Shown here: one piece after another, positions 3,660-60,737 of the stretch | How the letters are laid out: each line of letters opens with the position of its first letter | Numbering within the stretch: position 1 is the stretch's first letter | Assembly (NCBI RefSeq): GCF_001984055.1 | Contig: NZ_LYVO01000025.1 | Span: forward strand, 1 to 64,000 | Source: Variovorax sp. KK3 | GTDB lineage: Bacteria > Pseudomonadota > Gammaproteobacteria > Burkholderiales > Burkholderiaceae_C | Reading direction: 5' to 3' | Length of the DNA: 64,000 nt | Notes under the pieces: generated by a model | Databases searched by the model: none | Seen by the model: only the letters and a program-made list of their open reading frames with translations | Told to the model about the DNA's origin: nothing | Position numbers and translations under genes: made by a program

Positions 3660-3688
3660 TTGAATGGTTTGACCATTATAGATATACT
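3660..3688 (+). promoter_or_regulatory. Promoter for the thiolase operon
   Basis: TTGAAT at 3660-3665 and TATACT at 3683-3688 are separated by 17 bases. The operator palindrome occupies the spacer, so a bound regulator should block RNA polymerase. The predicted start is near 3695, leaving a leader of about 35 bases. Confidence 0.6.
3663..3677. promoter_or_regulatory. GntR-type operator, site 1
   Basis: AATGGTTTGACCATT, a perfect inverted repeat of AATGG around TTTGA. It lies between divergent genes at 3645 and 3730 and overlaps both promoters. It is identical to the site at 9293. Confidence 0.8.
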
Positions 3689-3703
3689 GGTCTGCCATTT
3701 CAA
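3675..3703 (-). promoter_or_regulatory. Promoter for the flavin reductase-FCD operon
   Basis: On the minus strand TTGAAA (3703-3698) and a consensus TATAAT (3680-3675) are 17 bases apart. The -10 box shares bases with the operator, giving the string TATAATGGT. Confidence 0.65.
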
Positions 3704-3729
3704 CCAAGCAAACCAAGGGAACCCCACCC

Positions 3730-4923
3730 ATGACTCGTCGAGTTGCCATCATCGGCACCAGCGCGATTCCGGTCGGACGCCACCAGACCAAGGCTGAAGA
3801 GCCGCTTCAGGTGCTGGAGCAGGAGATCATGACCAGGCTGGTGGTCGAAGCGGTCGCGGACGCCGGCGTCGAGAAGAAGGACATCGGCAGCCTGGTGCTG
3901 ACGCTGCCCCGGCCCTACACGCTGCAGAAGTACTTCTCCACCTTCCTCGTGAGCCACCTGCGGCTGCAGTGCACCGGCAGCGTGCTCGAAGTGATGGGCA
4001 ACGGCATGACCGCCGCGGTCTGCTTCGACCGGGCCTGCGACGAGATCCTGCTCGGCCGCACCAACGTCGCGCTCGCGCTCGGCATCAACATGGAGGCGGC
4101 CACGCCGGCGTCGGAACATGCGATGAGCAGCATGCGCACCACCGGCGACGTGGACTTCCATGCCTCCAGCGGCTTCATCCCGATCAGCTGGTACGCCATG
4201 GACGCCATGCGCTACATGCACGAGTACGGCGCCTCGCGCGAGCACTTCGGCGCGGTGGCGGTCAAGAACCGCTGGCACGCCTCGATGAATCCGCTGGCGC
4301 AGTACCGCAAGCCGATGACGCTGCAGGAAGTGCTGGACCAGCGACCGATCGTCGAGCCGCTCGGCCTCTACGACGTGCCGGGCCGCAGCGACGGCGCCGC
4401 CTGCCTGGTGCTGGCCTCCGAAGAGGTGGCCAAGTCGCTCGGCCGCCCCTATGCGCTGGTGCGCGGCCGCGGCTTCTGCCACGACGGCTCGCATCAGATC
4501 AACGAAGTGCCCAACGACATGACCGAGCTGATCGCCGCAAAGCAGGCCTCGGCCACCGCGTATGCGCAGGCCGGCATCGCGGCCAAGGACATCGACGTGG
4601 CCGAGTTCTACGCGCCCTGCACCGTCGTCGAAGTGCTGGTGAGCGAGGCGGTCGGCTTCTTCGGCCGTGGTGAAGGCGCCCCGGCTGCGGCCGAGGGCCG
4701 CACCAAGCTCGGCGGAGACATCCCGATCTCGACCTCGGGCGGACTGACTTCGCGCGGCCACCCCGCCTACGTCACCTCGCTCTACAACTACTGCGAGATG
4801 GCCGACCAGTTGCGCGGGCGCGCGGGCGAGCGCCAGGTCGCGGATGCGCGCCTGGGCATGACGACCGGTGAACTCGGCAACTACAACGCCGCGCTCGTCC
4901 ATGTGATGGAGGCCCAACGATGA
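3730..4923 (+). CDS. SCP2-type thiolase-like protein, probable aldolase partner of DUF35
   Basis: 397 aa thiolase fold. The usual nucleophile segment is replaced by VMGNGMTAAV near residue 90, so there is no cysteine where thiolases have one, and the His-Asp motif is EFYAPC, with Tyr in place of His. These changes are those of Ltp2-type enzymes, which act as aldolases on steroid acyl-CoA side chains together with a DUF35 protein. The C-terminal SGGLTSRGHP motif is kept. The next gene is a DUF35 protein overlapping by four bases, supporting a complex. A CoA-thioester carbon-carbon lyase is the best guess; a true thiolase is less likely. Confidence 0.75.
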   Translation: MTRRVAIIGTSAIPVGRHQTKAEEPLQVLEQEIMTRLVVEAVADAGVEKKDIGSLVLTLPRPYTLQKYFSTFLVSHLRLQCTGSVLEVMGNGMTAAVCFDRACDEILLGRTNVALALGINMEAATPASEHAMSSMRTTGDVDFHASSGFIPISWYAMDAMRYMHEYGASREHFGAVAVKNRWHASMNPLAQYRKPMTLQEVLDQRPIVEPLGLYDVPGRSDGAACLVLASEEVAKSLGRPYALVRGRGFCHDGSHQINEVPNDMTELIAAKQASATAYAQAGIAAKDIDVAEFYAPCTVVEVLVSEAVGFFGRGEGAPAAAEGRTKLGGDIPISTSGGLTSRGHPAYVTSLYNYCEMADQLRGRAGERQVADARLGMTTGELGNYNAALVHVMEAQR

Positions 4924-5342: not shown

Positions 5343-5362
5343 ACCCCGCCCAGGAGATCTTC

Positions 5363-5686: not shown

Positions 5687-5728
5687 CGGCGGCTCGGGTG
5701 GCGAAGTCATGGTCCTAGAATCCGCGCC

Positions 5729-6487
5729 ATGATCCACGCCGACTTCCGCCCGAAAGAAGCCTCCGAATCCGCCCTGGGGTTCGAGCCCATCGCGCCCTCG
5801 CGCGCCTTCGAGGAAATCGCGGCGCAGATCCGCGAACTCGTGGCCACCGGCCGCCTCAAGCCGGGCGACCGGCTCCCCGCCGAGCGAGACCTCTCCGCCA
5901 AATTCAAGGTCAGCCGCAACACATTGCGAGAAGCGCTTCGCGCGCTCGAGCTGAGCGGCATGATCGAACTGCGCAAGGGCGCCGCCGGCGGCGCCTTCGT
6001 GCTGCCTGGCAGCTCGGGCGTGGTGGTCAACGGCCTGCGCGACCTCTACCACTTGGGCGCCATCACGCCCGGGCACCTCACAGAGGCCCGCGTCTGGCTC
6101 AGCGAGATGGTCGTGCGCGTGGTCTGCGAGCGCATCACCGAGGAAGAGCTGGCCGCGCTCGAGGCCAACGTCGCGGCCGCCACCAAGGCGGACAAGGCAG
6201 GCAACTTCCAGGAACGCGCCGACCTGCACCGCGAATTCCACAACCTGCTGGCCGCTGCCACCCACAACCCAATCGTCCAGATCACGATGGAAGGCGTGAT
6301 GGAAGTGATGCGCGAGTTCGTCAAGGCCATCGGCCCGAGCGTCAACGCCTACACCCTGCCCTCGCGCCGCCGGCTGCTCAAGCACCTGCGCGCACGCGAT
6401 GCCGATGCGGCGGTGGCCGAGATGAGCAAGTTCCTGGAGCGCCTGCAGGCGAACTACATGGAGCTCTGGAACTCGCGCAAGCAATAG
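5729..6487 (+). CDS. GntR/FadR-type transcriptional regulator (FCD domain)
   Basis: 252 aa. Winged helix-turn-helix at about residues 25-95 (LKPGDRLPAERDL, KVSRNTLREALRALELSG, KGAAGGAFVLPG) and a C-terminal FCD domain with the metal/ligand His pattern REFHNLL..ATHNP. It closely resembles the regulator at 17188..18015. A likely -10 box TAGAAT (5716-5721) sits seven bases before the ATG, suggesting a leaderless transcript besides read-through from the thiolase operon. No full copy of the cluster operator is seen directly upstream. It is a candidate regulator for the WWTGG-N5-CCAWW sites. Confidence 0.88.
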   Translation: MIHADFRPKEASESALGFEPIAPSRAFEEIAAQIRELVATGRLKPGDRLPAERDLSAKFKVSRNTLREALRALELSGMIELRKGAAGGAFVLPGSSGVVVNGLRDLYHLGAITPGHLTEARVWLSEMVVRVVCERITEEELAALEANVAAATKADKAGNFQERADLHREFHNLLAAATHNPIVQITMEGVMEVMREFVKAIGPSVNAYTLPSRRRLLKHLRARDADAAVAEMSKFLERLQANYMELWNSRKQ

Positions 6488-9292: not shown

Positions 9293-9307
9293 AATGGTTT
9301 GACCATT
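9293..9307. promoter_or_regulatory. GntR-type operator, site 2
   Basis: AATGGTTTGACCATT, identical to site 1. It overlaps the -10 box of the amidohydrolase promoter. The neighbouring gene on the right (9407) runs in the same direction, so only one unit is controlled here. Confidence 0.8.
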
Positions 9308-10222: not shown

Positions 10223-10251
10223 TAGACTTGTAATGGACTGACCATTACACT
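10223..10251 (+). promoter_or_regulatory. Promoter for the racemase/MFS unit
   Basis: TAGACT (10223-10228) and TACACT (10246-10251) with a 17-base spacer that is almost entirely filled by operator site 3. Confidence 0.45.
10232..10246. promoter_or_regulatory. GntR-type operator, site 3
   Basis: AATGGACTGACCATT. The outer arms are perfect, but the inner T of the left arm is A, the only site in the window with that change. It lies between the divergent regulator (10168) and racemase (10328) genes. Confidence 0.75.
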
Positions 10252-15417: not shown

Positions 15418-15432
15418 AATGGTTGGACCAAT
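15418..15432. promoter_or_regulatory. GntR-type operator, site 4
   Basis: AATGGTTGGACCAAT, between the divergent thiolase-like (15396) and SDR (15497) genes. It overlaps a TTGGAC -35-like box of the plus-strand promoter. Confidence 0.78.
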
Positions 15433-17134: not shown

Positions 17135-17149
17135 ATTGGTCCAACCATT
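17135..17149. promoter_or_regulatory. GntR-type operator, site 5
   Basis: ATTGGTCCAACCATT, between the divergent SDR (17070) and GntR regulator (17188) genes. It lies just upstream of the regulator's probable -35 region, consistent with autoregulation. Confidence 0.78.
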
Positions 17150-17187: not shown

Positions 17188-18015
17188 ATGCCCAGCTCCC
17201 TCGACCCCGACGGCTTCGACGTCGTCCCCATCAACCCGCAGCGCATCTTCCAGGAAGTGGCCAACCAGTTGCGCCGGCTGATCTCCGAAGGCAAGCTGCG
17301 CCCCGGCGACAAGCTGCCGCCCGAGCGCGAACTGGCCAAACGCTTCGGCGTGAGCCGCAACACCATGCGCGAGGCGCTGCGCGCGCTGGAGCTGAGCGGT
17401 CTGATCGAGCTGCGCCTCGGCGCGACCGGCGGCGCCTTCGTGCTCCCGGGCAGTTCCAACGCGGTGGTCGCCGGCATGCGCGACCTCTACTTCCTGGGCG
17501 CGATCACGCCGCAACATCTGACGGAGGCACGCATCGCCGTCAGCGCGGCCGTCATCCGTGTGGCTTGCGCGCGCATCACCGACGAGGAGATCGATGCCTT
17601 GGAAGCCAACGTGGCAGCCGCCGAACGTGCCCGACAGGCCGGCGACTTCGAGGAGCGCACGCGGCACCACCAGGCCTTTCACGTGATGCTGGCGTGCAGC
17701 ACGCACAACCCCGTGCTGATCGCGACGACGGAGGGGATCATGGAGATCACCCGCCAGTTCGTGAAGGCCATCGGCCCGACCGACGAGCAGAACCACTACA
17801 CGCATCCCTCGCGCAAGCGGCTGCTCAAGCACCTGCGCGCGCGGGACACCGAGAAGGCGGTAGCCGAGATGAGCGCGGCGCTGACCAAGCTGCACCGCGC
17901 CTACATGGTGAAGGCCGAAGCCCCGGGCAATGCGCCTAGCGCGCCAGCACCACCCCCGCCGCCTCCCGGTCCCAGGCCTGCGAAAGGCCGGCCTCGAGTT
18001 CCTGGCGCAGCTTGA
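17188..18015 (+). CDS. GntR/FadR-type transcriptional regulator (FCD domain)
   Basis: 275 aa. Winged helix with LRPGDKLPPEREL, GVSRNTMREALRALELSG and LGATGGAFVLPG; the FCD domain keeps the histidines (AFHVMLACSTHNP). It is very similar to the regulator at 5729. The C-terminus carries an extra proline-rich tail of roughly 25 residues, and this tail overlaps the 3' end of the convergent ligase gene by 80 bases. A -10-like TACGAT ends seven bases before the ATG, suggesting a leaderless mRNA. Operator site 5 upstream makes it a candidate self-controlled regulator of the cluster. Confidence 0.88.
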   Translation: MPSSLDPDGFDVVPINPQRIFQEVANQLRRLISEGKLRPGDKLPPERELAKRFGVSRNTMREALRALELSGLIELRLGATGGAFVLPGSSNAVVAGMRDLYFLGAITPQHLTEARIAVSAAVIRVACARITDEEIDALEANVAAAERARQAGDFEERTRHHQAFHVMLACSTHNPVLIATTEGIMEITRQFVKAIGPTDEQNHYTHPSRKRLLKHLRARDTEKAVAEMSAALTKLHRAYMVKAEAPGNAPSAPAPPPPPPGPRPAKGRPRVPGAA

Positions 18016-20630: not shown

Positions 20631-20646
20631 TATAATAATCCAAATG
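20631..20646 (+). promoter_or_regulatory. -10 box placed for leaderless start of the tandem CoA-transferase
   Basis: A consensus TATAAT (20631-20636) ends seven bases before the ATG at 20644, so transcription would begin at about the start codon. On the opposite strand the same stretch supplies TATTAT for the Bug gene. Confidence 0.55.
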
Positions 20647-20657
20647 GTCCAACCATT
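20643..20657. promoter_or_regulatory. GntR-type operator, site 6, overlapping a start codon
   Basis: AATGGTCCAACCATT, a perfect palindrome. Its second base is the A of the plus-strand ATG, so the operator encodes the first residues of the protein. It lies between divergent genes at 20589 and 20644. Confidence 0.8.
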
Positions 20658-28143: not shown

Positions 28144-28158
28144 AATGGTTAGACCAAT
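28144..28158. promoter_or_regulatory. GntR-type operator, site 7
   Basis: AATGGTTAGACCAAT, between the divergent nitroreductase (28114) and Bug (28247) genes. It overlaps the -10 boxes in both directions: TATATT on the minus strand and TATAAT (28158-28163) on the plus strand. Confidence 0.8.
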
Positions 28159-31242: not shown

Positions 31243-31257
31243 ATTGGTAAGACCATT
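31243..31257. promoter_or_regulatory. GntR-type operator, site 8
   Basis: ATTGGTAAGACCATT, between the divergent CoA-transferase (31221) and SnoaL-like (31330) genes. It overlaps TATAAT of the minus-strand promoter, and its last base is the first of TATACT (31257-31262) on the plus strand. Confidence 0.8.
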
Positions 31258-31284
31258 ATACTTACCAAGCTTCGACGCCGTCAA
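31255..31284 (-). promoter_or_regulatory. Promoter for the CoA-transferase/DUF2889 unit
   Basis: On the minus strand TTGACG (31284-31279) and consensus TATAAT (31260-31255), 18 bases apart. The -10 box overlaps operator site 8, as in TATAATGGT at 3680. Confidence 0.68.
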
Positions 31285-31329
31285 CGCCGATGACGCCATC
31301 GACGCACGTTCATCCCCCGGAGAGCTCGC

Positions 31330-31851: not shown

Positions 31852-31858
31852 ATCGGCG

Positions 31859-33312: not shown

Positions 33313-33318
33313 CGGGGC

Positions 33319-33347
33319 ATCATACGCCGAGGCCGGTCTTTTGGTAA
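33319..33347 (-). promoter_or_regulatory. Promoter for the small protein/racemase unit
   Basis: On the minus strand TTACCA (33347-33342) and TATGAT (33324-33319), 17 bases apart, the -10 ending six bases before the ATG at 33312. The -35 box lies in operator site 9. Confidence 0.5.
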
Positions 33348-33354
33348 GACCTAT
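33340..33354. promoter_or_regulatory. GntR-type operator, site 9 (degenerate)
   Basis: TTTGGTAAGACCTAT. The TTGGTAAGACC core matches site 8, but the right arm lacks the A of CCA. It lies between divergent genes at 33312 and 33407. Confidence 0.55.
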
Positions 33355-33406
33355 GGACATTTAGGCCATTCCAACCGATCATCCGAAGCCCAAGGAGACT
33401 CCCCAC

Positions 33407-34378
33407 ATGCATCGCCGTACCCTCGTCGCGGGCGCCCTGCTGGCGCTCGCCGCCACCGCCCCGGCCCTGGTCCTGGCCCAGGAGAACTGGCCCGACCGTC
33501 CCATCAAGTTCATCGTGCCCGCCGCGGCCGGCGGCACGAACGACGTGCTCGGCCGCTACATCCAGGAGCCGCTGCAGAAGCTGCTGGGCCAGCCGGTGGT
33601 CATGGAATACAAGCCCGGCGCGGGCGGCGCCATCGCCTCGCAATACGTGGCACAGCAGCCAGCCGACGGGTATACCTTCCTGCTGCACGGCAGCGGCCTG
33701 GTGACCGTGCCGCTGGTGCAGCGCAAGCCCAGCTACGACGCGGTGAAGGACTTCGTGCCCGTGTCGCTGATGGGCACATCGCCGATGGTGCTGATGACGA
33801 ACCCCTCGATGCCCGACTCGCTCGCGCAGTTCGTGCAGCAGGCGCGCGCCAAGCCCGGTTCGCTCGAATGGGGCGCCTCCGCGCTCGGCGGTGTGGGGCA
33901 GCTCGCCATGGTCGCCTTCCACGACGCGGCAGGCATCAAGAACATGGTGATGGTGCCCTACCCCGGCGCCGGCCCCGCCGCGCAGGCCCTGCTGTCGGGG
34001 CAGACCAAGTACATGCTGTCCACGCCTTCCTCGGTGACGGCCGGCTTCGTGAAGGACGGCAAGATGCGCATCCTCGGCGTGTCGACCGGCCAGCGCAGCC
34101 CGCTGCTGCCCGAGGTGCCGAGCATCTCCGAAGCGGTGCCGGGCTATCACACCGAGACTTGGTTCGGCCTGGTCGCGCGCACCGGCACGCCGCCGCAGGT
34201 GGTGGCGAAGCTGGCGGACGCCGTGGCCAAGGTCATCGCCCAGCCGGACATCCAGGAGAAGTTCCGCGCCGTCTACGTGGTGCCGAAGAGCGGCACCAAG
34301 GCACTGGGCGACATCATCCGAGCCGACCACGAACTGTGGGGCAAGGTGGTGAAGGCGAACAACATCACGATGGACTGA
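33407..34378 (+). CDS. Bug/TctC-type substrate-binding protein
   Basis: 323 aa. Signal peptide MHRRTLVAGALLALAATAPALVLAQ, then WPDRPIKFIVPAAAGGTND, MEYKPGAGGAIA, PADGYTFLL and VMVPYPG. Periplasmic. Its last 14 bases overlap the 3' end of the convergent KstD-like gene, an arrangement repeated at 47844..47857 with another Bug gene. Confidence 0.87.
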   Translation: MHRRTLVAGALLALAATAPALVLAQENWPDRPIKFIVPAAAGGTNDVLGRYIQEPLQKLLGQPVVMEYKPGAGGAIASQYVAQQPADGYTFLLHGSGLVTVPLVQRKPSYDAVKDFVPVSLMGTSPMVLMTNPSMPDSLAQFVQQARAKPGSLEWGASALGGVGQLAMVAFHDAAGIKNMVMVPYPGAGPAAQALLSGQTKYMLSTPSSVTAGFVKDGKMRILGVSTGQRSPLLPEVPSISEAVPGYHTETWFGLVARTGTPPQVVAKLADAVAKVIAQPDIQEKFRAVYVVPKSGTKALGDIIRADHELWGKVVKANNITMD

Positions 34379-36134: not shown

Positions 36135-36811
36135 GGCGCCGGCGTGCCGTGGACCAGCAGGGTCACGATGCCGCCCAGCAAGGCCCGGCCATCGTCGCGC
36201 AGCGGCAGGCGGGCATCGGACGCATACGACGCCGTCATCGCCGCCTCGTCGGCGAAGCAGAGTTCGGCGATGCCGTCGACGGCGAGCGTGTCCTCGTCGA
36301 CCGCACGCCCATCGGGCCCGAAGCGCGCCACGACCAGGTGCTGCACGTAGCCGTCCACCTGCGGCAATCGCTTCACCAGGTCGGCATGGCGGCCGAACCA
36401 GCCCTCGCGGAAGGCGGCCGGGCTGGGTGCCGCGCGCTGCAACAACATCCAGCGCCGGAAGCCGCCCTGGGCAGCGCCACGCGCGGGCTCGATGGGCACG
36501 TTCGGCGCGGTGTCGAAGGCGAACAGGCGCTCGCCCGATGCTTGCACCGCGGCGTCGAACTCGCGGCAGGTGGCCGACTGGCGCGCCTCGACACGCGCCG
36601 CCTCGTCGGCGAATGCGAACTCGACGATCGTGTGCAAGCGCTCGGCGCCCGGTGCGATCGAACGCCGCGCCTGGTCGGCGCTCACCGAATCGGTGGGGAT
36701 GTGGCGCAGCACGCGGTAGACATGCGTGCGCGACTGCGGCGGGCGCGGCAGGCGGGGAAGCGCGGCACGCACCGCGGCATCGCCGGCGAGGCAAAGAATG
36801 TGGGTCTGCAT
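36131..36811 (-). CDS. EthD-like dimeric alpha/beta-barrel protein
   Basis: 226 aa from the ATG at 36811; a second ATG at 36823 is possible. The C-terminal half fits the EthD pattern: RRWMLLQRAAPSPAAFREGW, FGRHADLVKRLPQVDGYVQH, and a final AELCFADEAAMTASY. The N-terminal half looks like a second, more diverged copy of the same fold. EthD-type proteins often accompany oxidative pathways; the role is unknown. It starts the unit with the KstD-like gene, next to operator site 10. Confidence 0.68.
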   Translation of the reverse strand: MQTHILCLAGDAAVRAALPRLPRPPQSRTHVYRVLRHIPTDSVSADQARRSIAPGAERLHTIVEFAFADEAARVEARQSATCREFDAAVQASGERLFAFDTAPNVPIEPARGAAQGGFRRWMLLQRAAPSPAAFREGWFGRHADLVKRLPQVDGYVQHLVVARFGPDGRAVDEDTLAVDGIAELCFADEAAMTASYASDARLPLRDDGRALLGGIVTLLVHGTPAP

Positions 36812-36857
36812 GACGGTCCGCATGGCGACATGCGGTGATCGATTTTTGGTCGCATCA

Positions 36858-36886
36858 TTGTATGGTCTTACCATTTACGCCACAAT
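36858..36886 (+). promoter_or_regulatory. Promoter for the MDR gene
   Basis: TTGTAT (36858-36863) and CACAAT (36881-36886), 17 bases apart, with the -10 ending eight bases before the ATG at 36895. Operator site 10 covers the end of the -35 box and most of the spacer. Confidence 0.5.
36861..36875. promoter_or_regulatory. GntR-type operator, site 10
   Basis: TATGGTCTTACCATT, between the divergent EthD-like (36811) and MDR (36895) genes. Confidence 0.75.
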
Positions 36887-37882: not shown

Positions 37883-38632
37883 TCAGGTGGAGCGCGAGCC
37901 GGCGCGCTTGCTCTTCTTGTCCCGCTCGCTCACCAGGTATTCCGTCACCCGACGCAGATGCGCCGCCATCGCATCCGATGCCGCCTGCGCATCGCGTTGG
38001 CGCATCAGGTCCAGCACGCGCTGGCGCACCACCATGATGTCCTTGTTGGGCCGCGGGTCCACGCTCGCGAGCATGGCGCGGTACACCTCCGACAGCGCGT
38101 CGACCATCATCAGCACCAGCGGGTTGTGCGTGGCCAGCGCGATGATCCGATAGAACTCGATCACCGACTGCGTGTTGCGTGAAGCCCGGCCCAGGCGGAA
38201 CAGGTCGGTGTGCAGGTCGATGTCGCGCTGGATCGCGTCGAACTCCTCGTCGGTCGCGCGCGGGCAGGCCAGGCGGATCGCCACGCAGATGATCTCGGTA
38301 CGCGCCTCCATCACGTTCTCGAGCGAGGCCTGCGCGAGCGACACCATGTCCTGCACCGTCTGCGCGAGGCCGCCGCTGCCGCCGCTCTTGATGAAGAAGC
38401 CGCCCTGGATGCCCTTGCGCGCCTCCACCACGCCCGACACCTCCAGGCTGCGCAGCGCATCGCGCGCGGCTGCGCGGCCGATGCCGAAGCGCTCGGCGAG
38501 TTCGCGCTCGCCGGGCAGCTGATCGCCCGGCTTCAACTCGCCGCTCATCAGCTGGTCGCGGATGCGGTCGCACACGGCTTCGAAACCGCGGCGCGTGCGC
38601 ACGGGTTGAAAGAGCGAATCGTCGTTCGACAT
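37883..38632 (-). CDS. GntR/FadR-type transcriptional regulator (FCD domain)
   Basis: 249 aa. Winged helix LKPGDQLPGEREL, GIGRAAARDALRSLEVSG, KGIQGGFFI; the recognition helix has GRAAARDAL rather than SRNTLREAL as in the other regulators. The FCD domain has IEFYRIIALATHNP, with Tyr in place of the first His. Diverges from the acyl-CoA dehydrogenase operon, with operator site 11 in the 66 bases between them, so autoregulation and control of the operon are likely. It ends four bases from the convergent MDR gene. Confidence 0.87.
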   Translation of the reverse strand: MSNDDSLFQPVRTRRGFEAVCDRIRDQLMSGELKPGDQLPGERELAERFGIGRAAARDALRSLEVSGVVEARKGIQGGFFIKSGGSGGLAQTVQDMVSLAQASLENVMEARTEIICVAIRLACPRATDEEFDAIQRDIDLHTDLFRLGRASRNTQSVIEFYRIIALATHNPLVLMMVDALSEVYRAMLASVDPRPNKDIMVVRQRVLDLMRQRDAQAASDAMAAHLRRVTEYLVSERDKKSKRAGSRST

Positions 38633-38672: not shown

Positions 38673-38687
38673 ATTGGTTGAACCATA
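38673..38687. promoter_or_regulatory. GntR-type operator, site 11
   Basis: ATTGGTTGAACCATA, in the control region shared by the regulator (38632) and the nine-gene acyl-CoA operon (38699). It is within 15 bases of the first possible ATG (38690) of the operon. Confidence 0.76.
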
Positions 38688-44479: not shown

Positions 44480-45454
44480 ATGAAGAATCGCATCACCGAG
44501 TTGCTCGGCATCCGCTACCCCATCGTCCAGGGCGGCATGCAATGGGTGGGCCGCGCCGAGCTGTGCGCCGCCGTCTCCAACGCCGGCGGCCTGGGCACGC
44601 TGGGCGCGCTGACCCAGCCCACACCCGACGACCTGGGCCGCGAGATCGAGCGCTGCCGCGCGATGACCGACAAGCCCTTCGGCGTGAACGTGACCATGCT
44701 GCCGACGGTCAGCCCACCGCCCTACGAGCGCATCCTCGACGTGATCGTGGAGCACGGCATCCGCATCGTGGAGACGGCGGGGAACGTGCCTGTCGAGGTG
44801 TTCCAGAGGCTGCGTGATGCGGGCATCGTGATCCTGCACAAGTGCACGTCGGTGCGGCATGCGCTGGCCGCCGAGAAGCGCGGCGTGCACGTGGTGAGCA
44901 TCGACGGCTTCGAATGCGCGGGGCATCCGGGCGAGGAAGACGTGCCGGGCCTGGTGCTGATCCCGGCTGCGGTGTCGGCGCTGAGCATTCCCGTGATCGC
45001 CTCGGGTGGTATTGCGGACGGGCGCGGCATGGCGGCGGCGTTGGCGCTCGGTGCGGAAGGCGTGAACATGGGCACGCGTTTCGTCGCCACGCAGGAGGCG
45101 CCGGTGCATGCGAACGTCAAGCACGCCCTGTTGAAGGCACGCGAGAACGACACGCGGCTCATCATGCGCACGCTGCGCAACAGCTCGCGTGTTCTGCTCA
45201 ATCCGGTGTCGGAGGAAGTGCTCGAACTCGAGCACCGGCCCGGCGGTGCGGCGTTCGAGGTGCTGCGGCCGCTGGTCAATGGGCAGCGCGGGCGTGCGGC
45301 GCTGGAGAGCGGCGACGTGACCAACGGCGTGATCTGGGCCGGCATGGTGGCCGGGCTGATCGACGACATTCCGACGTGTGCCGAGTTGATCGAGCGCATG
45401 GTCGCGCAGTGCCGCAAGCGGCTGTCGGCGGCAGCGGCGCTGGCCGCCGCATGA
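44480..45454 (+). CDS. Nitronate monooxygenase/IpdC-like FMN-dependent TIM-barrel protein
   Basis: 324 aa. FMN barrel: LGIRYPIVQGGMQWVG, SNAGGLGTLGALT, FGVNVTMLP, IDGFECAGHPGEED, and VIASGGIADGRGMAAALALGA. The FECAGHPGEED motif is that of the NMO-like subgroup that includes IpdC, a flavin reductase of steroid CD-ring degradation, rather than of true nitronate oxidases. It may reduce or oxidise a cyclic CoA intermediate. Overlaps the kinase gene by four bases. Confidence 0.8.
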   Translation: MKNRITELLGIRYPIVQGGMQWVGRAELCAAVSNAGGLGTLGALTQPTPDDLGREIERCRAMTDKPFGVNVTMLPTVSPPPYERILDVIVEHGIRIVETAGNVPVEVFQRLRDAGIVILHKCTSVRHALAAEKRGVHVVSIDGFECAGHPGEEDVPGLVLIPAAVSALSIPVIASGGIADGRGMAAALALGAEGVNMGTRFVATQEAPVHANVKHALLKARENDTRLIMRTLRNSSRVLLNPVSEEVLELEHRPGGAAFEVLRPLVNGQRGRAALESGDVTNGVIWAGMVAGLIDDIPTCAELIERMVAQCRKRLSAAAALAAA

Positions 45455-46461
45455 CCATCGACGCGACGCGAGAGGCGCTGGCGACCGTGCTCGCCGGCGC
45501 CGGCGCACGCGGCGCGGTGCAATCCCTGGCCCGCCTGACCGGCGGCGCCACCAAGACCACGTGGTCCTTCGACTGGCTCGACGATGAAGGCCGGCATCCG
45601 CTGATCCTGCAGCAGACGCCATCGCGTGCGCAGGACGTCGGCGGCGCAGCACGTCGCCCGCCCAAGCTCACGGCCGAAGAAGATGCGGCGCTGATGATCG
45701 AGGCCCGTGCCGCGGACGTGCCCGCACCGCGCGTCGTGCATGTTCTCGAACCGTCGGACGCGCTCGGCAGCGGCTACATCACCGAACGCATCGACGGCGA
45801 AACGCTCGGCAAGCGCATCGTCTCCGATGCCGCCTTCGACACCGTGCGGCCACGCCTCGCGGCCCAGTGCGGCGAGATCCTTGCCGCCGTCCATCGCATG
45901 CCCACCACGGGCCTGCCCTTCCTCGCCAGGCTCGATGCCGCGGACGAACTCGCCATCTACGGAGGCCTGCTCAGGGAACACGCCTTCGTCCACCCGGCCT
46001 TGTCCTATGCGCTGCGCTGGATCGGCGATCGCCTGCCGCCCGACGCCCCATCGACGGTGGTGCATTCCGACTTTCGCACCGGCAACCTGATCGTCGATCC
46101 GAAGGAAGGCGTGCGCTGCGTGCTCGACTGGGAGATCGCGCGCATCGGCGACCCCATGCACGACCTGGGCGTGCTCTGCATGCGCAGCTGGCGCTTCGGC
46201 GGCCGCGGCGAGGCGGGCGGATTCGGCACGCGCGAAGACCTGTACGCGGCCTACGAGCACGCCAGCGGCATCCGCGTCGACCCGCACCGCGTGCGCTTCT
46301 GGGAAGCGATGTCCAACCTCAAATGGGCCATCTCCTGCGTGCGCCGCGGCCTCGCCCGCGGCGCCGACGGACAGCCCGCGAGCAGCGAACTCGCCGCCGT
46401 CGGCAGGCGGCTCGAAGAACCGTTGTGGGACTTCATGACCCTGGCCACCGCCAAGGACTGA
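45451..46461 (+). CDS. APH-family kinase, LvaA-like
   Basis: 336 aa. Protein-kinase-like phosphotransferase: LTGGATKTTWSFDW nucleotide loop, the catalytic HSDFRTGNLIV, and metal-binding LDWEIARIGDP. In levulinate catabolism LvaA, of this type, phosphorylates a 4-hydroxyacyl-CoA with help from a small protein LvaB; the following gene here is a small DUF6285 protein of similar size. Likely phosphorylates a hydroxyacyl-CoA to make it a good leaving group. It overlaps the NMO-like gene by four bases. Confidence 0.78.
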   Translation: MTIDATREALATVLAGAGARGAVQSLARLTGGATKTTWSFDWLDDEGRHPLILQQTPSRAQDVGGAARRPPKLTAEEDAALMIEARAADVPAPRVVHVLEPSDALGSGYITERIDGETLGKRIVSDAAFDTVRPRLAAQCGEILAAVHRMPTTGLPFLARLDAADELAIYGGLLREHAFVHPALSYALRWIGDRLPPDAPSTVVHSDFRTGNLIVDPKEGVRCVLDWEIARIGDPMHDLGVLCMRSWRFGGRGEAGGFGTREDLYAAYEHASGIRVDPHRVRFWEAMSNLKWAISCVRRGLARGADGQPASSELAAVGRRLEEPLWDFMTLATAKD

Positions 46462-46473
46462 GGAGATACGCCG

Positions 46474-46839
46474 ATGCCCGCCTTCGTCCCTTCCGCCACC
46501 ACGCTGCTGCAGGCCGCAGCCACCGATCTCGAACGCGACGTGCTGCCGGCACTGGCCGGCTTCCCACGCTTTCGCACGCGGGTCATCGTCAACTTGCTGC
46601 GCCTGTTGACCCGCGAACTGGCACTCGGCGCTGCCGCCGATGCGGCCGAGCGGGCACGACTGCAGGCACTGCTCGACGCCGACGCGGACGACCTCCCCGC
46701 GTTGCGCGCGGAACTGGCGCACCGCCTCGAGTCCGGCGCGATCGACCTGGCCGACGATGCCCTGGTGCAGCACCTGCGCGAGACCCTGCGCGACGCGCTC
46801 GCGATCGACCACCCGGGCTGGACCGGCGAGCACGGCTGA
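46474..46839 (+). CDS. DUF6285/LvaB-like small partner protein
   Basis: 121 aa, all-helical, no cysteines or motifs of an enzyme. The sequence (LQAAATDLERDVLPALAG, RFRTRVIVNLLRLLTREL) resembles DUF6285 proteins that follow APH-type kinases in acyl-CoA clusters. LvaB, needed for LvaA kinase activity in levulinate catabolism, has the same size and position. So the probable role is an essential accessory subunit of the kinase encoded 12 bases upstream. Confidence rests on position and outline more than on motifs. Confidence 0.68.
   Translation: MPAFVPSATTLLQAAATDLERDVLPALAGFPRFRTRVIVNLLRLLTRELALGAAADAAERARLQALLDADADDLPALRAELAHRLESGAIDLADDALVQHLRETLRDALAIDHPGWTGEHG

Positions 46840-54035: not shown

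Positions 54036-54036
<1 letters not shown>
53107..54036 (-). CDS. SMP-30/gluconolactonase family lactonase
   Basis: 309 aa. [76 protein letters not shown] and [16 protein letters not shown]. It is closely related to 47844..48818 over the whole length, with a duplication the simplest explanation. Hydrolysis of a lactone formed from a hydroxyacyl intermediate or by Baeyer-Villiger oxidation is a reasonable guess. Confidence 0.86.
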
Positions 54037-54745
<709 letters not shown>

Positions 54746-54749
<4 letters not shown>

Positions 54750-56542
54750 GCGGCCACCTCTTCGAGCGGCGCCGGCGCGCTGCCCAGGTAGGCCGACACC
54801 ACGCCGGGCATGCGCGTCACCTCGCCGGGCGCGCCGTCGGCGATCTTCACGCCATGGTGCAGCACCACCACGCGGTCGACGAAGGACATCAGCATCTTGA
54901 GGTTGTGGTCGACCACGATCAGCGTCATGCCCTTGTCGCGCAGGCCGCGCAGCACCTGTGCCAGCCGCGCCGCCTCGACCTGGTTGAGGCCGGCGGCCGG
55001 CTCGTCGAGCAGCAGCACCTCGGGTTGCGCGGCCAGCGCCATGGCCACGCCCAACAGCTTCTGCTCGCCGTAGGGCAGGCTGCCTGCAATGTCGTCACGC
55101 CGCGCCGGCAGGCCGACCTCGGCCAGGCAGCCCAGCGCATGCGCCATGCGTTCGCGCTCGCGCGCACGCCAGCCTGCCGTGCGCAGCAAGCCGCCCCAGA
55201 AGCCGCCGGGCCGATGCAGGTGGCTGGCGATCGCCATGTTGGCGAGCACGGTCTGGCCGGCGCACAACGCGGTCTGCTGAAAGCTGCGCACCACGCCGAG
55301 CCGCGCCACGCGATGCGCGGGCCGCGCCGCGATGTCCTGGCCGCGCACGCGGATCGCACCGGCACTCACCGGCAGAAAGCCCGAGAGCATGCTGAGCAGC
55401 GTGGTCTTGCCCGCGCCGTTGGGGCCGATGAGCCCGAGGATCTCGCCGGCGCGCACGTCGAAGCTCACGTCCTGCACGGCCTTCAGGCCCTTGAAATGAC
55501 GGCTCACACCGGCGACTTCGAGCACCTTGCCTTCGCGATGCGGCCGCGCGGCCAGCGGTGCCGGTGGCGTGTCTTCGAGGGTGTGCCCCATGCGCGCGGC
55601 GCGCCATCGCGCGAACGCGGGCCGCGCGGTCAGCGAGCCGACCAGTCCGCCCGGCAGCATGCGCACCGCCAGCAGCAGCATGAGCGCGAACGCGGCGAAG
55701 TTCAGGTCGCCGAGGAAGCGCAGGCCTTCGGGAATGATCGCGAACAGCGCCCCGCCCAGCATGGGCCCGACCAGCGTCGCCTTGCCACCGAGCACAACGC
55801 CCAGGATGCCGGTGGCGGAGTAGCTCACGCCCAGCAACGAGGGCGAGAGCACGAACACCTTGGGAATGAGCAGGGCTCCGGCCAGCGAGGCCACGCCGCC
55901 CGACAGCGCGATGTTCAGCACGCGCGAGCGCGCCGTGGCGATGCCCAGCGACTCGGCAAGCGCGGGCGCCTCGCGGATCGCGGTCCAGCCGCGGCCGGTG
56001 GCGCTGTCGCGCAGGTTGCGCAGCAACACGAAGGCGACGGCCAGCGCGGCGACGACCGCGAAGAGGTAGCCCTGCTGCGCATTCCAGCCGACGCCCTGCA
56101 CGAGCGGCAAGGGCGAGGCCGTCACCATCAGTCCCATCGGCCCGCGCGTGATGTCCACCCAGTTGACCACCAGCAGCACGAGGATCTCGGCCACCACCAG
56201 CGTGGCGATGGCGAAGTAGGCGCCGCTCAGGCGTGCGGAGACGATGCCGACGAGCGCGCCGAGCAGCAGCCCCGGCAGGATGCCCAAGGGCACCGCCAGC
56301 CAGTAGTTCAACCCGAGCCGCGCGACCAGGATGCCGACCGTGTAAGCGCCCAGCCCCAGAAAGGCCGCATGCCCGAAGCTCACGTAGCCCAGTTGTCCGA
56401 AGGTGACCGACACGCCGAGCACGAAGATGGCCAGCACGCCGGCGTAGGCCGCGACATCGAGCCAGTACGGCGAGCGGATCACGCTCGCCAGCAGCGCTGC
56501 CACCGCGATGCCGAGCAGCAGGTCGCGCAGCGTGCGGCTCAT
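54746..56542 (-). CDS. LivM-LivG fusion: ABC permease plus ATPase
   Basis: 598 aa. Residues about 1-330 are a LivM-type permease (GYVSFGHAAFLGLGAYT, GPMGLMVTASPLP, multiple membrane helices). Residues about 345-590 are a LivG-type ATPase with Walker A GPNGAGKTT, signature LPYGEQK and Walker B VLLLDEP, ending RMPGVVSAYLG. One polypeptide thus supplies both a channel subunit and an ATPase. The start at 56542 overlaps the LivH stop codon; the frame upstream is a LivH shadow. Confidence 0.9.
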
Positions 56543-57405
56543 CGCGCGGCTCCCGCCAGGCCCTGCGGCCGCACGAGCAGCACCAGCAGCATCAACGAAT
56601 AGACGGTGGCCGCGGCCATGCCTTCTTCCATCACGAGCCCCAGCATCGCTTCGATGACGCCGACGGCCAGCGCGCACAGCACAGCGCCACCCGCGCTGCC
56701 CAGGCCGCCCAGCACCACGATGACGAAGGCCTTGATCAGCACGGCCTGGCCCAGCATCGGCGAATAGGACGTGATCGGCGCCAGCAGCGCGCCGCCGAGT
56801 CCGCCGACCACCGCGGCCAGCAGGAAGGCCCGCGTGCCCACCGACTTGACGTCGATGCCCACCACGCGCGCGGCATGCTCGCTCTGCGCGAGCGCGCGCA
56901 TCTCGGTGCCGAAGCGGGTGCGGCGCGCGAGCAGGTCCAGCGCCACCAGCGCGGCGATGCTGGCGACGATGACGAAGAGGCGCTGCGAGCTGAGCCCGAC
57001 GCCGGCCAACTCGAAGCGCCCCTGCAGTCCGTCGACGCGCGCGGGCGCCGGCCCCCACACCGAGAGCACCGCCTGGTTGAAGAGCACGCCCACCGCGAAG
57101 GTGGTGAGCAGGATGTCGGTACGGCCCTCGGTGCGGCGCAACAGCGGCGACACCGCCAGCGCGTCGAAGACCCAACCCACCAGCGCGCCGACCAGCATCG
57201 CGAGCGGCAAGGCGGCCAGGTACGGCAGCCCGAGCAGCTTGTTCGCCAGCACCACGGTGAGCGCGCCCAGCATCACCACTTCGCCATGGCCGAAGTTGAT
57301 GATGTGCAGCACGCCGAACGCGAGCGTCAGGCCCAGCGCGATCAGCGCGTAGCCGAAGCCGATCGAGAGGCCGTTCAGCAGTTGCTGCAGGAGTGCTTGG
57401 GTCAT
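56539..57405 (-). CDS. livH: Branched-chain amino acid-type ABC permease LivH
   Basis: 288 aa, about eight membrane helices: LLNGLSIGFGYALIALGLTLAFG, INFGHGEVVMLGA, and VLGGLGSAGGAVLCALAVGVIEA. Inner-membrane channel subunit pairing with the LivM half of the next protein. Lies 25 bases after the binding-protein gene. Confidence 0.9.
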   Translation of the reverse strand: MTQALLQQLLNGLSIGFGYALIALGLTLAFGVLHIINFGHGEVVMLGALTVVLANKLLGLPYLAALPLAMLVGALVGWVFDALAVSPLLRRTEGRTDILLTTFAVGVLFNQAVLSVWGPAPARVDGLQGRFELAGVGLSSQRLFVIVASIAALVALDLLARRTRFGTEMRALAQSEHAARVVGIDVKSVGTRAFLLAAVVGGLGGALLAPITSYSPMLGQAVLIKAFVIVVLGGLGSAGGAVLCALAVGVIEAMLGLVMEEGMAAATVYSLMLLVLLVRPQGLAGAAR

Positions 57406-58549: not shown

Positions 58550-58562
58550 CGGTTGTCTCCTT

Positions 58563-58577
58563 ATTGGTTCTACCATT
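58563..58577. promoter_or_regulatory. GntR-type operator, site 12
   Basis: ATTGGTTCTACCATT upstream of the ABC transporter operon. On the minus strand it overlaps a TTTAAT -10-like box (58580-58575), forming TTTAATGGT in the manner of TATAATGGT at sites 1 and 8. A further ATTGG half-site follows at 58583-58587. Confidence 0.76.
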
Positions 58578-58627
58578 AAATTATTGGTTGGCCGCGGATC
58601 ACATCGGGGAAAGTACGGAGTGGCGGG

Positions 58628-59626
58628 TCATCGATGCGACACGCGCAGCCAGGCCTTCCCCACCGTCGCGCGGCCTTGCAATGCCGCCAGCGCTTGCGGT
58701 GCCTGCTCGAACTCGAACGACGCGCCGGGCATGAGGCGGATACGGCCTTCGGCATGCTGGTCGTAGACCTCGCGCGTGAGCCGCGCCGCGAGGGCGACGT
58801 CGCGCTTGCGCACCTCGCCCCACAGCACGCCGACGGCGCTCGCGTTGTGCAGCAGCAGCCGGTTGGCCGGCAGTTGAGTGAGCGCGCCCCCCGCGAAGCC
58901 GATGACGAGGTAGCGCGCGCCGTAGGCCAGGCAGCGCAGGCTTTGTGCGCCGACCTCACCGCCCACCGGGTCGTAGATCACGTCGGCGCCACTGGGCGCG
59001 AGCCCGCGGAACGCATCGACCCAGGCCGGATCGCCGTAGTTCAGCGCTGCGTCGGCGCCCGCATCGAGGCAGGCCCGCACCTTCTGCGCGCTGCCGGCGG
59101 TGGCGATGACGCGCGCGCCCATCAGCTTGCCCAGCTGCAGCGCGGCGCTGCCCACGCCGCCCGCGCCTGCATGCACGAGCAGGGTTTCGCCGGGCAGCAG
59201 GCGGCCCGCCATGCGCAGCGCGAAGAGCGAGGTCGGATAGTTGCTGCGCAGCGCGAGCGCATCGCCCGGGTCGATGTCCGGCGGAATCGCGACGGCCTCG
59301 CTGCGCGGCACCAGTGCGTACTGCGCGAAGCCACCCTGGCGCGACGAACTGGCGACGCGCGTGCCCAAGGGCAGCTCACCGCCCTCGCCGGCGACGATGG
59401 TGCCGAGGACTTCCGAGCCGGGCGTGAAAGGGAGCGGCGGCTTGACCTGGTACTTGCCACGCACGATCAGCGTGTCGCCGAACGCGAGGCCCGCGGCCTC
59501 GACGCGCACCAGGTACTGGTCGGGCCCGGGCTGGGGCAACTCGACGTCGCGCAAATGCATCTCACCGCGCTCGCTGATGTCTTCGACACGCCAGGCGCGC
59601 ATCGCTTTCGGCAGAGTGTTCGTCAT
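58628..59626 (-). CDS. NADPH:quinone oxidoreductase-like MDR superfamily protein
   Basis: 332 aa. AAGLAFGDTLIVRGKY, FTPGSEVLGTIVAGEGG, LLVHAGAGGVGSAALQLGKL and DVIYDPVGGEVG. Zinc-independent MDR of the same group as 36895..37878. Probably reduces an enone or enoyl-CoA. The ATG at 59626 overlaps the stop of the kinase gene, so the two are translated together. It ends about 80 bases from the binding-protein gene start. Confidence 0.84.
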   Translation of the reverse strand: MTNTLPKAMRAWRVEDISERGEMHLRDVELPQPGPDQYLVRVEAAGLAFGDTLIVRGKYQVKPPLPFTPGSEVLGTIVAGEGGELPLGTRVASSSRQGGFAQYALVPRSEAVAIPPDIDPGDALALRSNYPTSLFALRMAGRLLPGETLLVHAGAGGVGSAALQLGKLMGARVIATAGSAQKVRACLDAGADAALNYGDPAWVDAFRGLAPSGADVIYDPVGGEVGAQSLRCLAYGARYLVIGFAGGALTQLPANRLLLHNASAVGVLWGEVRKRDVALAARLTREVYDQHAEGRIRLMPGASFEFEQAPQALAALQGRATVGKAWLRVSHR

Positions 59627-60708
59627 TCGGATTCCTTCGCGGCGGCCCAGCCGGTCTCTGCGGTGGTCTGCACGCGCGCGGCCACGGCCGCTGCCTTGCT
59701 GTTGGCCGCGTTGCCATCGAGCGCGCGGCGGGCCACGCCCTGCTGGATGGCGGCCAGGCGGAACATGTTGAAGGCCAGGTGGTAGTGCCAGTGCGCGATT
59801 GGCGCACCGCCGAGGCCGACTGCGCGCCCGCTTGCCCGGCAGTAGTCGGCCACGTGTTGCGCTTCGGTCGGGATGCCTTCGGGCAGTGGCTCGAGCCCGG
59901 CCAGCGTGCGGTGCGTCCCGAGTTGCAGCCGCCACGAGAGGCAGTGGTAGGCGAAGTCGACCAGTGGATCGCCAAGGGTCGACAGCTCCCAGTCGAGCAC
60001 GGCGACGATGCGCGGTTCGTGTGCGTGAAAGACCAGGTTGTCGAGCCGGAAGTCGCCGTGCACGAGCTGTGTGCTCTCCTGCGCCGGCACATGCGCGGGC
60101 AGCCATTCGATCAGCCGCTCCATCGCATCGATGCGCGCGGTTTCGCTCGCGCGGTACTGGCGCGTCCATCGATCGAGCTGGCGTTCGACGTAGCGGCCTT
60201 CGCGGCCGAAGTCGGCGAGGCCGCGCGAGCGCCAGTCCACGGCGTGCAACGCCGCCATCACGCGGGCCATCTCGGCATAGTGGGCGCGGCGCTCGCCCGG
60301 AGACATGCCGGGCAGCGTCTGGTCGGTGAGGATGCGGCCTTCGGCGAAGTCCATCAGGTAGAAGCTGCTACCGATGACGGCCGGGTCTTCGCACAGCGCC
60401 AGCGCGCGCGGCACCGGCACGTCGGAGCCTTGCAAGGCGCGCAGCACGCGGAACTCGCGCTCCACCGCATGCGCCGATGGCAGCAGCACGCCCGGCGGCT
60501 TGCGCCGCAGCACCAGTCGGCGCGAACCGGCGTCGACGATGAAGGTCGGGTTCGACTGCCCACCTTCCACTTGGCGCACGCCCAACGCGCCATCGAAGCT
60601 GCCGACCACGCGCCGAATGAATGCATCGAGCGCGGACGCCTGCAGCGCATCGAGCCCGCCGGCTGGTGCAGCAACAGCGTCGGCCGCAGGGGTGGATGAA
60701 TCGTTCAC
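59623..60708 (-). CDS. APH-family kinase, ACAD11-N-terminal-like
   Basis: 361 aa from the GTG at 60708. VEGGQSNPTFIVDAG nucleotide loop, LRRKPPGVLLPSAHAVEREF, the catalytic HGDFRLDNLVFH, and VLDWELSTLGDPLVDFAY. It matches the kinase domain that is fused to acyl-CoA dehydrogenase in ACAD10/11-type proteins and stands alone in bacteria. Substrate likely a hydroxyacyl-CoA; the ACAD10/11-like protein at 51915 could act on the product. A TAGATT box lies ten bases before the GTG, so the leader is minimal. Confidence 0.82.
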   Translation of the reverse strand: MNDSSTPAADAVAAPAGGLDALQASALDAFIRRVVGSFDGALGVRQVEGGQSNPTFIVDAGSRRLVLRRKPPGVLLPSAHAVEREFRVLRALQGSDVPVPRALALCEDPAVIGSSFYLMDFAEGRILTDQTLPGMSPGERRAHYAEMARVMAALHAVDWRSRGLADFGREGRYVERQLDRWTRQYRASETARIDAMERLIEWLPAHVPAQESTQLVHGDFRLDNLVFHAHEPRIVAVLDWELSTLGDPLVDFAYHCLSWRLQLGTHRTLAGLEPLPEGIPTEAQHVADYCRASGRAVGLGGAPIAHWHYHLAFNMFRLAAIQQGVARRALDGNAANSKAAAVAARVQTTAETGWAAAKESE

Positions 60709-60722
60709 TTTGCTGTTTAATC

Positions 60723-60737
60723 TATGGTTGAACCAAT
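60723..60737. promoter_or_regulatory. GntR-type operator, site 13
   Basis: TATGGTTGAACCAAT, between the divergent kinase (60708) and Bug (60791) genes. Its first two bases belong to the TAGATT -10-like box of the minus-strand gene. Last copy of the operator in the window. Confidence 0.76.

What the first reader, a model, noticed from the sequence alone, without database searches (positions are those of the whole stretch)
3663..60737. One operator family (WWTGG-TNNNA-CCAWW) controls nearly every unit of a 60 kb catabolic super-cluster
Thirteen near-palindromes occur at 3663, 9293, 10232, 15418, 17135, 20643, 28144, 31243, 33340, 36861, 38673, 58563 and 60723, all in intergenic promoter regions. 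Ten lie between divergent genes as the shared midpoint. Together they cover the first gene of essentially all units between 120 and 61771; none is seen beyond. The form is known for PdhR/FadR-type GntR regulators, and four FCD-type GntR genes lie inside. Such a dense, scattered single regulon around one apparent pathway looks undescribed. Which regulator binds which site is inference.
Basis: partly seen in the sequence, partly recalled or inferred. Interest (0 to 1): 0.92.

Follow-up and report, generated by a model that had tools for sequence, protein, structure and literature searches.

The report
One operator across a giant cluster
In a Variovorax-type bacterium one short DNA switch sits in front of every gene unit of a 61-kilobase breakdown-pathway cluster, and four related sensor proteins encoded inside the cluster are the likely hands on that switch.

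Summary
All 13 sites read as stated. They lie at the 5' end of 24 of 24 gene units between 120 and 61771 (22 of 22 if tandem runs are not split at sites); the next unit has none. The exact pattern occurs 14 times in the 7.19 Mb genome: 11 in this window, 1 inside a gene, 2 at loci whose genes join the cluster in sister strains. Of 100 genus genomes, 12 with a close orthologue of the GntR at 9407 have 9-14 sites; the other 88 have 0-7. Operator cores are conserved, flanks much less. Many sites overlap sigma70-like promoters, which suggests repression. Regulator and operator partly covary in relatives. Best reading: a FadR-subfamily regulon read by several resident paralogues, perhaps with different central-triplet preferences. 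Binding and ligands are not shown. Two-regulator versions are known (C. glutamicum GntR1/GntR2, E. coli ExuR/UxuR); size, paralogue number and sub-types make this a new variant. The substrate is unknown, probably cyclic.

The parts
3663..3677 (.). operator AATGGTTTGACCATT, divergent w4 / w5; overlaps two divergent sigma70-like promoters
9293..9307 (.). operator AATGGTTTGACCATT upstream of w10 (amidohydrolase), tandem genes
10232..10246 (.). operator AATGGACTGACCATT, divergent GntR-A / CoA-transferase; the GGA half-site is present in 18 of the 18 A-type rows with an upstream hit (2 further rows, one a fragment and one a 43% relative, had no hit)
15418..15432 (.). operator AATGGTTGGACCAAT, divergent thiolase / SDR
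17135..17149. operator ATTGGTCCAACCATT, divergent SDR / GntR-C (not in the footprint; kept in front of C in G005)
20643..20657 (.). operator AATGGTCCAACCATT, divergent TctC-CoA ligase unit / double CoA-transferase
28144..28158 (.). operator AATGGTTAGACCAAT, divergent six-gene unit / TctC
31243..31257 (.). operator ATTGGTAAGACCATT, divergent CoA-transferase / SnoaL
33340..33354 (.). operator TTTGGTAAGACCTAT (one mismatch), all 15 bases identical in the 7 orthologous regions compared
36861..36875 (.). operator TATGGTCTTACCATT, divergent EthD-FAD enzyme unit / zinc ADH; a weak one-mismatch neighbour at 36845
38673..38687 (.). operator ATTGGTTGAACCATA, divergent GntR-B / nine-gene acyl-CoA unit
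58563..58577 (.). operator ATTGGTTCTACCATT upstream of the ten-gene unit that starts with a periplasmic binding protein, tandem genes; lost in 1 of 4 compared sequences (G005)
60723..60737 (.). operator TATGGTTGAACCAAT, divergent APH-ADH unit / TctC
5729..6487 (+). GntR-FCD regulator D (252 aa), last gene of the unit led by 3663
   Evidence: Pfam PF00392 + PF07729
9407..10153 (-). GntR-FCD regulator A (248 aa), behind 10232
   Evidence: orthologues
17188..18015 (+). GntR-FCD regulator C (275 aa), behind 17135
37883..38632 (-). GntR-FCD regulator B (249 aa), behind 38673
   Evidence: orthologues
2659..3645 (-). flavin reductase fused to an FCD sensor domain without a DNA-binding domain; its FCD is closest to that of regulator A (43%)

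Best explanation
The palindrome is the operator of a local FadR-subfamily (GntR-FCD) regulon. Dimers of the four paralogous regulators encoded inside the cluster bind it where it overlaps the core promoters, usually of both divergent units, and block transcription until pathway intermediates bind their FCD domains. Shown here: the sites, their density, coverage, conservation, frequent overlap with promoter-like sequences, co-occurrence with the regulators, and partial regulator/operator covariation in relatives. Inferred: binding, dimers, repression, and ligands (probably pathway acids or CoA thioesters). Also inferred: overlapping use of one operator by several paralogues, each perhaps preferring some central triplets (B with TGA).
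For: 24 of 24 units have a site at the 5' end, or 22 of 22 without splitting at sites. 11 of 14 exact genome matches lie in the window. In three relatives of 3-4 contigs every exact site falls into a few clusters (G005 12 of 12 in two, G052 11 of 11 in three, G008 12 of 12 in two); in G121 12 of 14 are on one contig. Of 100 genus genomes, the 12 with an A orthologue (74-100% identity) have 9-14 sites and the other 88 have 0-7; 27 genomes with an A-like hit at E below 1e-36 average 7.0 sites against 0.25 in 73 without. In 12 orthologous regions (4-16 sequences each) the commonest base has a mean frequency of 88-100% in the operator core against 58-82% in the rest of the intergenic region. Best promoter score near the operator averages 8.8 against 3.6 with shuffled flanks; 17 of 24 unit starts at p<=0.05; the operator centre is often 10 bases downstream of the -10 start or in the spacer. 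HTH identity among A-D 46-65%, FCD 27-61%. B-like regulators with SRTA in the recognition helix have AAGGT-N3-ACCTT palindromes in front of their genes in G012 (2) and G014 (3), the only genomes of 100 with more than one. TGA/TCA centres: 46 of 150 sites in genomes with B of type GRAA/SRSS/SRSG against 1 of 69 in the other fetched loci.
Against: No binding, expression or ligand data. Regulators and sites sit in the same clusters, so co-occurrence alone does not prove that they interact; genomes share ancestry, so counts over them are not independent, and the grouping was made after seeing the data. Of the 27 regulator-positive genomes, 10 have 0-3 sites. The SRTA regulator of G041 has neither WWTGGT nor AAGGT sites, and G032, whose B-like regulator is SRSS, has one AAGGT palindrome in its cluster. 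7 of 24 unit starts lack a promoter score above the shuffles, and some best promoters place the operator at the -35 or further away (15418 +, 33340 both ways, 20643 +). Asn after SR, as in C and D, is linked in the literature to A/T at the flanking central bases (the numbering match is mine), yet the sites nearest C are TGG/CCA, so the triplets are not explained by that rule. The site at 58563 is lost in G005.
Confidence: 0.85

Rival explanations
1. Four private sub-regulons: each paralogue binds only the sites with its own central triplet, mostly near its own gene, so the 'one operator' is several related operators.
For: Central triplets cluster along the window (adjacent identical pairs 5 of 12, permutation p 0.002). 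TGA/TCA centres track B-type regulators (46 of 150 against 1 of 69). A, B and C/D differ at the two residues after [SG]R (PA, AA, NT), the first of which I map to a position linked in the literature to central bases.
Against: The core TGGT/ACCA is identical in 11 of 13 sites; C and D have the same recognition residues; the AAG group (31243-36861) contains no regulator gene; identical neighbouring triplets could also come from duplicated promoters.
Confidence: 0.3
2. One master regulator, inside or outside the cluster, binds all sites, and the other GntR proteins act elsewhere or are idle.
For: All sites share one core. The genome holds a further related GntR on C32 (50% identical to C).
Against: The C32 regulator has no such site in the 16 kb fetched around it. 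A, B and C each lie behind a site kept in relatives and D is in a site-led unit. Relatives with B-like and D-like regulators but no A orthologue keep a regulon with mostly TGA centres (G141, G146, G014, G046, G032).
Confidence: 0.12
3. The sites are remnants of duplicated promoters or a sequence bias, not functional operators.
For: Several enzyme families are duplicated in the cluster (TctC, thiolase, CoA-transferase), so promoters could have been copied.
Against: Operator cores are conserved while flanks are not, also where the rest is only 58% conserved, and sites recur in Hydrogenophaga loci; the reversed control gives 0; genus genomes without the regulators average 0.25 sites.
Confidence: 0.03

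Closest known systems
Corynebacterium glutamicum GntR1/GntR2 (PMC2230225; start of abstract and passages seen)
   Same: Two FCD-type GntR paralogues share the same 15-bp binding sites; the gntK site spans +4 to -11; sites are 1-2 mismatches from TNGTNNNACNA.
   Different: Two regulators and a gluconate/glucose-uptake regulon; here four paralogues lie within the regulated cluster, 24 units are covered and central triplets are locally sub-typed.
Escherichia coli ExuR/UxuR (PMC9369180; start of abstract and passages seen)
   Same: Paralogous GntR-family regulators jointly control one catabolic pathway, with cross-regulation and proposed heterodimers.
   Different: Two regulators, hexuronate pathway; regulator A scores far below the NCBIfam ExuR (74.5 of 396) and Uxu-regulator (63.2 of 442) cut-offs.
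FadR-subfamily divergons of Suvorova et al. 2015 (PMC4494728; abstract, passages, sections 10 and 15 read)
   Same: Palindromic TKGT-N3-ACMA operator; a single mid-intergenic site usually controls both divergent operons; residues of the recognition helix correlate with operator bases.
   Different: I saw nothing in the parts read on one cluster with four paralogues and 13 sites; the rest of the paper and its supplements were not read.
PdhR / LldR
   Same: Best NCBIfam hits of regulator A; both are listed with 3-nt central spacing in PMC4494728.
   Different: Scores 105.6 against cut-off 330 and 95.8 against 311: not orthologues by these models.
Acinetobacter p-hydroxyphenylacetate hydroxylase reductase C1 (PDB 5zc2, 5zyr), for the flavin reductase-FCD protein
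   Same: Flavin reductase with a C-terminal extension; among the top sequence and fold matches together with 3rh7.
   Different: Here the extension is an FCD domain by Pfam; that the C1 extension is MarR-like and effector-sensing is recalled, not from a call.

Membership tests
FadR-subfamily (GntR-FCD) regulon | Regulator with N-terminal GntR winged helix and C-terminal FCD domain | tested here: met
   4 of 4 regulators match PF00392 and PF07729 above cut-off
FadR-subfamily (GntR-FCD) regulon | Operator TKGT-N3-ACMA in an A/T-rich palindrome | tested here: met
   11 of 13 exact TGGT-N3-ACCA, 2 of 13 with one mismatch; consensus from PMC4494728
FadR-subfamily (GntR-FCD) regulon | Site in front of the regulator's own transcription unit | tested here: met
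   A 10232, B 38673, C 17135; D in the unit led by 3663
FadR-subfamily (GntR-FCD) regulon | Regulator binds the site and is released by a ligand | not testable with these tools
   needs EMSA, footprint or DAP-seq
Shared-operator paralogue regulon (GntR1/GntR2 or ExuR/UxuR kind) | Paralogues with a conserved DNA-binding domain and diverged sensor domain | tested here: met
   HTH identity 46-65%, FCD 27-61%; HTH higher in 6 of 6 pairs, though for D/C only 65 against 61%
Shared-operator paralogue regulon (GntR1/GntR2 or ExuR/UxuR kind) | Two or more paralogues bind the same sites | not testable with these tools
   inferred only; triplet sub-types leave private sub-regulons open
PdhR, LldR, ExuR or FadR orthologue | Regulator A reaches the NCBIfam cut-off | tested here: not met
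   PdhR 105.6 of 330, LldR 95.8 of 311, ExuR 74.5 of 396, FadR 25.2 of 249.2; B, C and D were not put through NCBIfam
Steroid or terpenoid catabolic cluster | Enzymes related to known steroid/terpenoid degradation enzymes | tested here: inconclusive
   Ring dehydrogenase nearest in the PDB to 3-oxosteroid 1-dehydrogenase 7p18 (6e-96) but below the NCBIfam 3-ketosteroid dehydrogenase cut-offs and scoring higher, also below cut-off, with a 4-oxocyclohex-2-ene-1-carboxylate dehydrogenase model; amidohydrolase nearest to PtmU3 and DitZ; CoA ligase nearest to bile acid CoA ligase 4lgc

The most novel reading that the evidence does not exclude
A graded multi-reader operator: four paralogous sensors of successive intermediates compete for one operator core, the central triplet setting which reader dominates at each of the 24 units, so that a very long pathway is switched on block by block. 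The same sensor family (FCD) is also fused to a flavin reductase of the regulon without a DNA-binding domain, so that an intermediate might tune enzyme activity as well as transcription.
Probability: 0.3. Interest if true: 0.75.

Novelty: new variant of a known kind. Interest (0 to 1): 0.58.

Why it matters
It gives a clean, testable natural system for how duplicated regulators divide or share one operator: 13 sites plus satellites, four candidate readers, and about twenty sister loci sets with matching changes in regulator and operator. It also marks out the boundary of an uncharacterised catabolic pathway (which genes belong, including two further contigs), and hints at an FCD sensor used to control an enzyme directly.

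Tried and rejected
Chance: rejected. Motif equally dense in the genome or in genes: rejected. One-mismatch places outside the regulon (C14, C16, C17, C39, C67, C117, C158) were treated as background (control 8); 4-5 kb around those on C14, C16 and C17 were fetched and show a single weak site each; C39, C67, C117 and C158 were not looked at. Outside the genus, the 48 genomes of the same order have 0-15 matches with controls of 0-17, and were not pursued.

A genus-wide search for the AAGGT variant gave 12 of 100 genomes with 1-3 matches; its reversed control gives 0-6 per genome, so single matches are background. Only G012 (2) and G014 (3) have more than one, all beside an SRTA regulator; G041 (SRTA) has none, and G032 (SRSS) has one inside its own cluster. 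A PdhR/LldR/FadR identity for regulator A was rejected by cut-offs. Naming the substrate did not succeed. The flavin reductase-FCD model is of moderate confidence (mean pLDDT 68.8, pTM 0.49) and its fold hits are flavin reductases (50 rows seen), so the fold search says nothing about the FCD half; phmmer of the FCD half alone gave weak GntR hits (7c7e E 0.0007, 6az6 E 0.017). The fusion is not limited to this regulon: 3 of 3 checked genomes with 0 exact sites (G027, G126, G013) carry 47-51% identical fusions.
Full report
What is there. The window is contig C25:1-64000 of a 7.19 Mb draft genome in 239 contigs. Named relatives of regulator A are mostly Variovorax, Xenophilus and Hydrogenophaga, and contigs of several genus members match named Variovorax contigs in length (for example G019:C8 and YR216, both 194,172 bases), so the genome belongs to the Variovorax group by inference; the window's own record is unnamed. 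The 13 stated sites are present letter for letter. Eleven match WWTGGTNNNACCAWW; 10232 and 33340 deviate at one base. A matrix made from the 13 sites finds them at 17.9-27.4 bits; the next hit, 36845, has 12.6 bits. My gene calls (Pfam; w46874-47857 and the three genes at 54036-57405 were not put to Pfam) give 24 transcription units between 120 and 61771 when tandem runs are split at sites, and 24 of 24 have a site at the 5' end; without that split it is 22 of 22, with two sites inside units. The next unit (61784-63474, starting a PIN-domain and neighbouring genes) has none. Eleven sites are between divergent genes, two (9293, 58563) between tandem genes.

Genome-wide control. The exact pattern occurs at 14 places in the genome, 11 in the window; the reversed control occurs 0 times. 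With one mismatch allowed there are 27 places in all against 8 for the control. Of the 3 exact places outside, C62 lies inside an 882-aa gene that I recognise as gyrA (locus L018; not searched) and is taken as chance. C75 and C100 are intergenic and have further one-mismatch sites nearby (C75:16351, 20682; C100:7186). C75 carries MaoC, enoyl-CoA hydratase, SDR, TctC, and a LigXa-type Rieske oxygenase with a reductase, plus thiolase- and OB-fold-like genes not put to Pfam; C100 carries a cupin, a DUF1805 gene and a PRISE-type reductase. In sister strains these genes sit in or beside the same cluster, again with sites: for example G021 and G131, G005 and G121. In one search, 5 sites of relatives overlap the first codons of a called gene (w21 or w4 types, ATG inside the operator); the others listed are intergenic.

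Comparative test. In 100 genomes of the genus, exact site counts are strongly uneven. All 12 genomes with an orthologue of regulator A (74-100% identity) have 9-14 sites; the other 88 have 0-7. The next richest (G141, G146 with 7; G014, G032 with 6; G046 with 5) have B-like and D-like regulators beside their sites. Taking 27 genomes with an A-like hit below E 1e-36, the mean is 7.0 sites against 0.25 in the other 73; but 10 of the 27 have only 0-3 sites, so a distant GntR relative alone does not bring the motif. In G005 12 of 12, G052 11 of 11 and G008 12 of 12 exact sites fall into two or three clusters, and in G121 12 of 14 lie on one contig. In 12 orthologous intergenic regions (all operators but 17135; 4-16 sequences each) the commonest base has a mean frequency of 88-100% in the eight core positions against 58-82% in the rest; one row (G005, 58563) has lost the site. 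The imperfect sites are conserved too: the GGA half-site in front of regulator A is kept in 18 of the 18 A-type rows with an upstream hit (2 more rows, a fragment and a 43% relative, had none), and 33340 is unchanged at all 15 positions in 7 sequences. Hydrogenophaga loci L129 and L135 have sites in front of the same kinds of genes.

Promoter geometry. Using recalled sigma70 hexamer frequencies, promoter-like pairs near the operators score 8.8 on average against 3.6 (highest mean of 60 shuffles 4.5) when flanks are shuffled; 17 of 24 unit starts are at p<=0.05 and 7 are not. The shuffle destroys local A/T gradients, so it is a generous null. The clearest cases (3663 both ways, 9293, 20643 leftward, 28144 leftward, 31243 leftward) put the operator just downstream of the -10, over the expected start, or inside the spacer; others (15418 rightward, 33340 both ways) put it at the -35 or upstream, and 20643 rightward downstream of the start. 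Most of these are places where a repressor would act; repression is therefore the inference, not a result.

Who reads the operator. Four regulators (D 5729, A 9407, C 17188, B 37883) are GntR-FCD proteins. In 6 of 6 pairs the DNA-binding part is more alike than the sensor part (46-65% against 27-61%; for D/C the gap is small). All keep ER, [SG]R and R[ED]A in the HTH, and differ in the two residues after [SG]R: NT (C, D), PA (A), AA (B). Relatives give a natural experiment: B-like regulators with SRTA have AAGGT-N3-ACCTT palindromes in front of their genes in G012 and G014, the only genomes of 100 with more than one such match; the expected sites were not found for the SRTA regulator of G041, and G032 has one such palindrome with an SRSS regulator. 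TGA/TCA centres occur in 46 of 150 sites of genomes whose B is GRAA, SRSS or SRSG and in 1 of 69 sites of the other fetched loci; orthologous sites are not independent, loci rather than whole genomes were counted, and the grouping was post hoc. Within the window, neighbouring sites share triplets more than expected (5 of 12 adjacent pairs, p 0.002). These facts tie the resident regulators to the operator and suggest partial specialisation, but cannot decide between shared and private use. Judged from the alignment, C and D keep histidines at FCD positions that often bind metal, which A and B lack and the fusion protein keeps in part (the role of these positions is recalled).

Flavin reductase with a sensor. 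The gene at 2659-3645, in a unit led by 3663, encodes a flavin reductase fused to an FCD domain and no HTH. Its FCD is closest to that of A (43% against 25-28% for the others). Twenty-two full-length relatives, the window's own copy included, are among the fetched loci; 3 come from genomes with 0 exact operators, so the fusion is a wider family. A model shows a barrel domain followed by an all-helical domain at moderate confidence. By analogy with the Acinetobacter C1 reductase (among the top matches with 3rh7), effector control of the reductase is a reasonable guess.

What the cluster does. The content (CoA ligases, class III CoA-transferases, thiolase/OB-fold pairs, acyl-CoA dehydrogenases, ring-type flavin dehydrogenases, seven TctC binding proteins among the Pfam-tested genes, and the Rieske oxygenase on C75) indicates CoA-thioester degradation of a cyclic compound. 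Nearest solved structures are 3-oxosteroid 1-dehydrogenase, PtmU3 and DitZ (their diterpenoid context is recalled), bile acid CoA ligase and a putative phthalate 4,5-dioxygenase. The NCBIfam cut-offs for 3-ketosteroid dehydrogenases are not reached. Substrate: unknown; steroid- or terpenoid-like is a lead.

Known or new. The operator form and divergon logic are as surveyed by Suvorova et al.; two FCD-GntR paralogues sharing sites are known in C. glutamicum, and paralogues with cross-regulation in E. coli. New here, as far as the listings show, are the scale (24 units at one locus plus satellites), four paralogues, conserved imperfect sites and triplet sub-types. I file it as a new variant of a known kind.

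Noticed in passing
window 2659-3645 (-): Flavin reductase fused to an FCD sensor domain without HTH; 47-51% identical fusions also occur in 3 of 3 checked genus genomes with 0 exact operator sites.
   Followed up: partly
window 45451-46839 (+): APH-type kinase next to a DUF6285 protein, with acyl-CoA dehydrogenases and a CoA ligase in the same unit; recalled to resemble the LvaAB 4-hydroxyacyl-CoA kinase arrangement.
   Followed up: no
window 20644-23187 (+): 847-aa protein with two matched stretches of the class III CoA-transferase family.
   Followed up: no
window 61784-62469 (-): PIN-domain gene plus a small gene without Pfam match at the edge of the regulated cluster; a toxin-antitoxin pair is inferred.
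   Followed up: no
window 36845-36859: A one-mismatch palindrome (12.6 bits) one base upstream of the operator at 36861.
   Followed up: no
L150 10810 to 10967: In G014 three AAGGT-N3-ACCTT palindromes stand within about 160 bases between a B-like GntR gene and a TctC-like gene.
   Followed up: partly
L137 (Variovorax sp. WDL1): A second, interrupted copy of regulator A: two adjacent reading frames of 93 and 155 aa; probably the same as the split matches on G015:C113.
   Followed up: no
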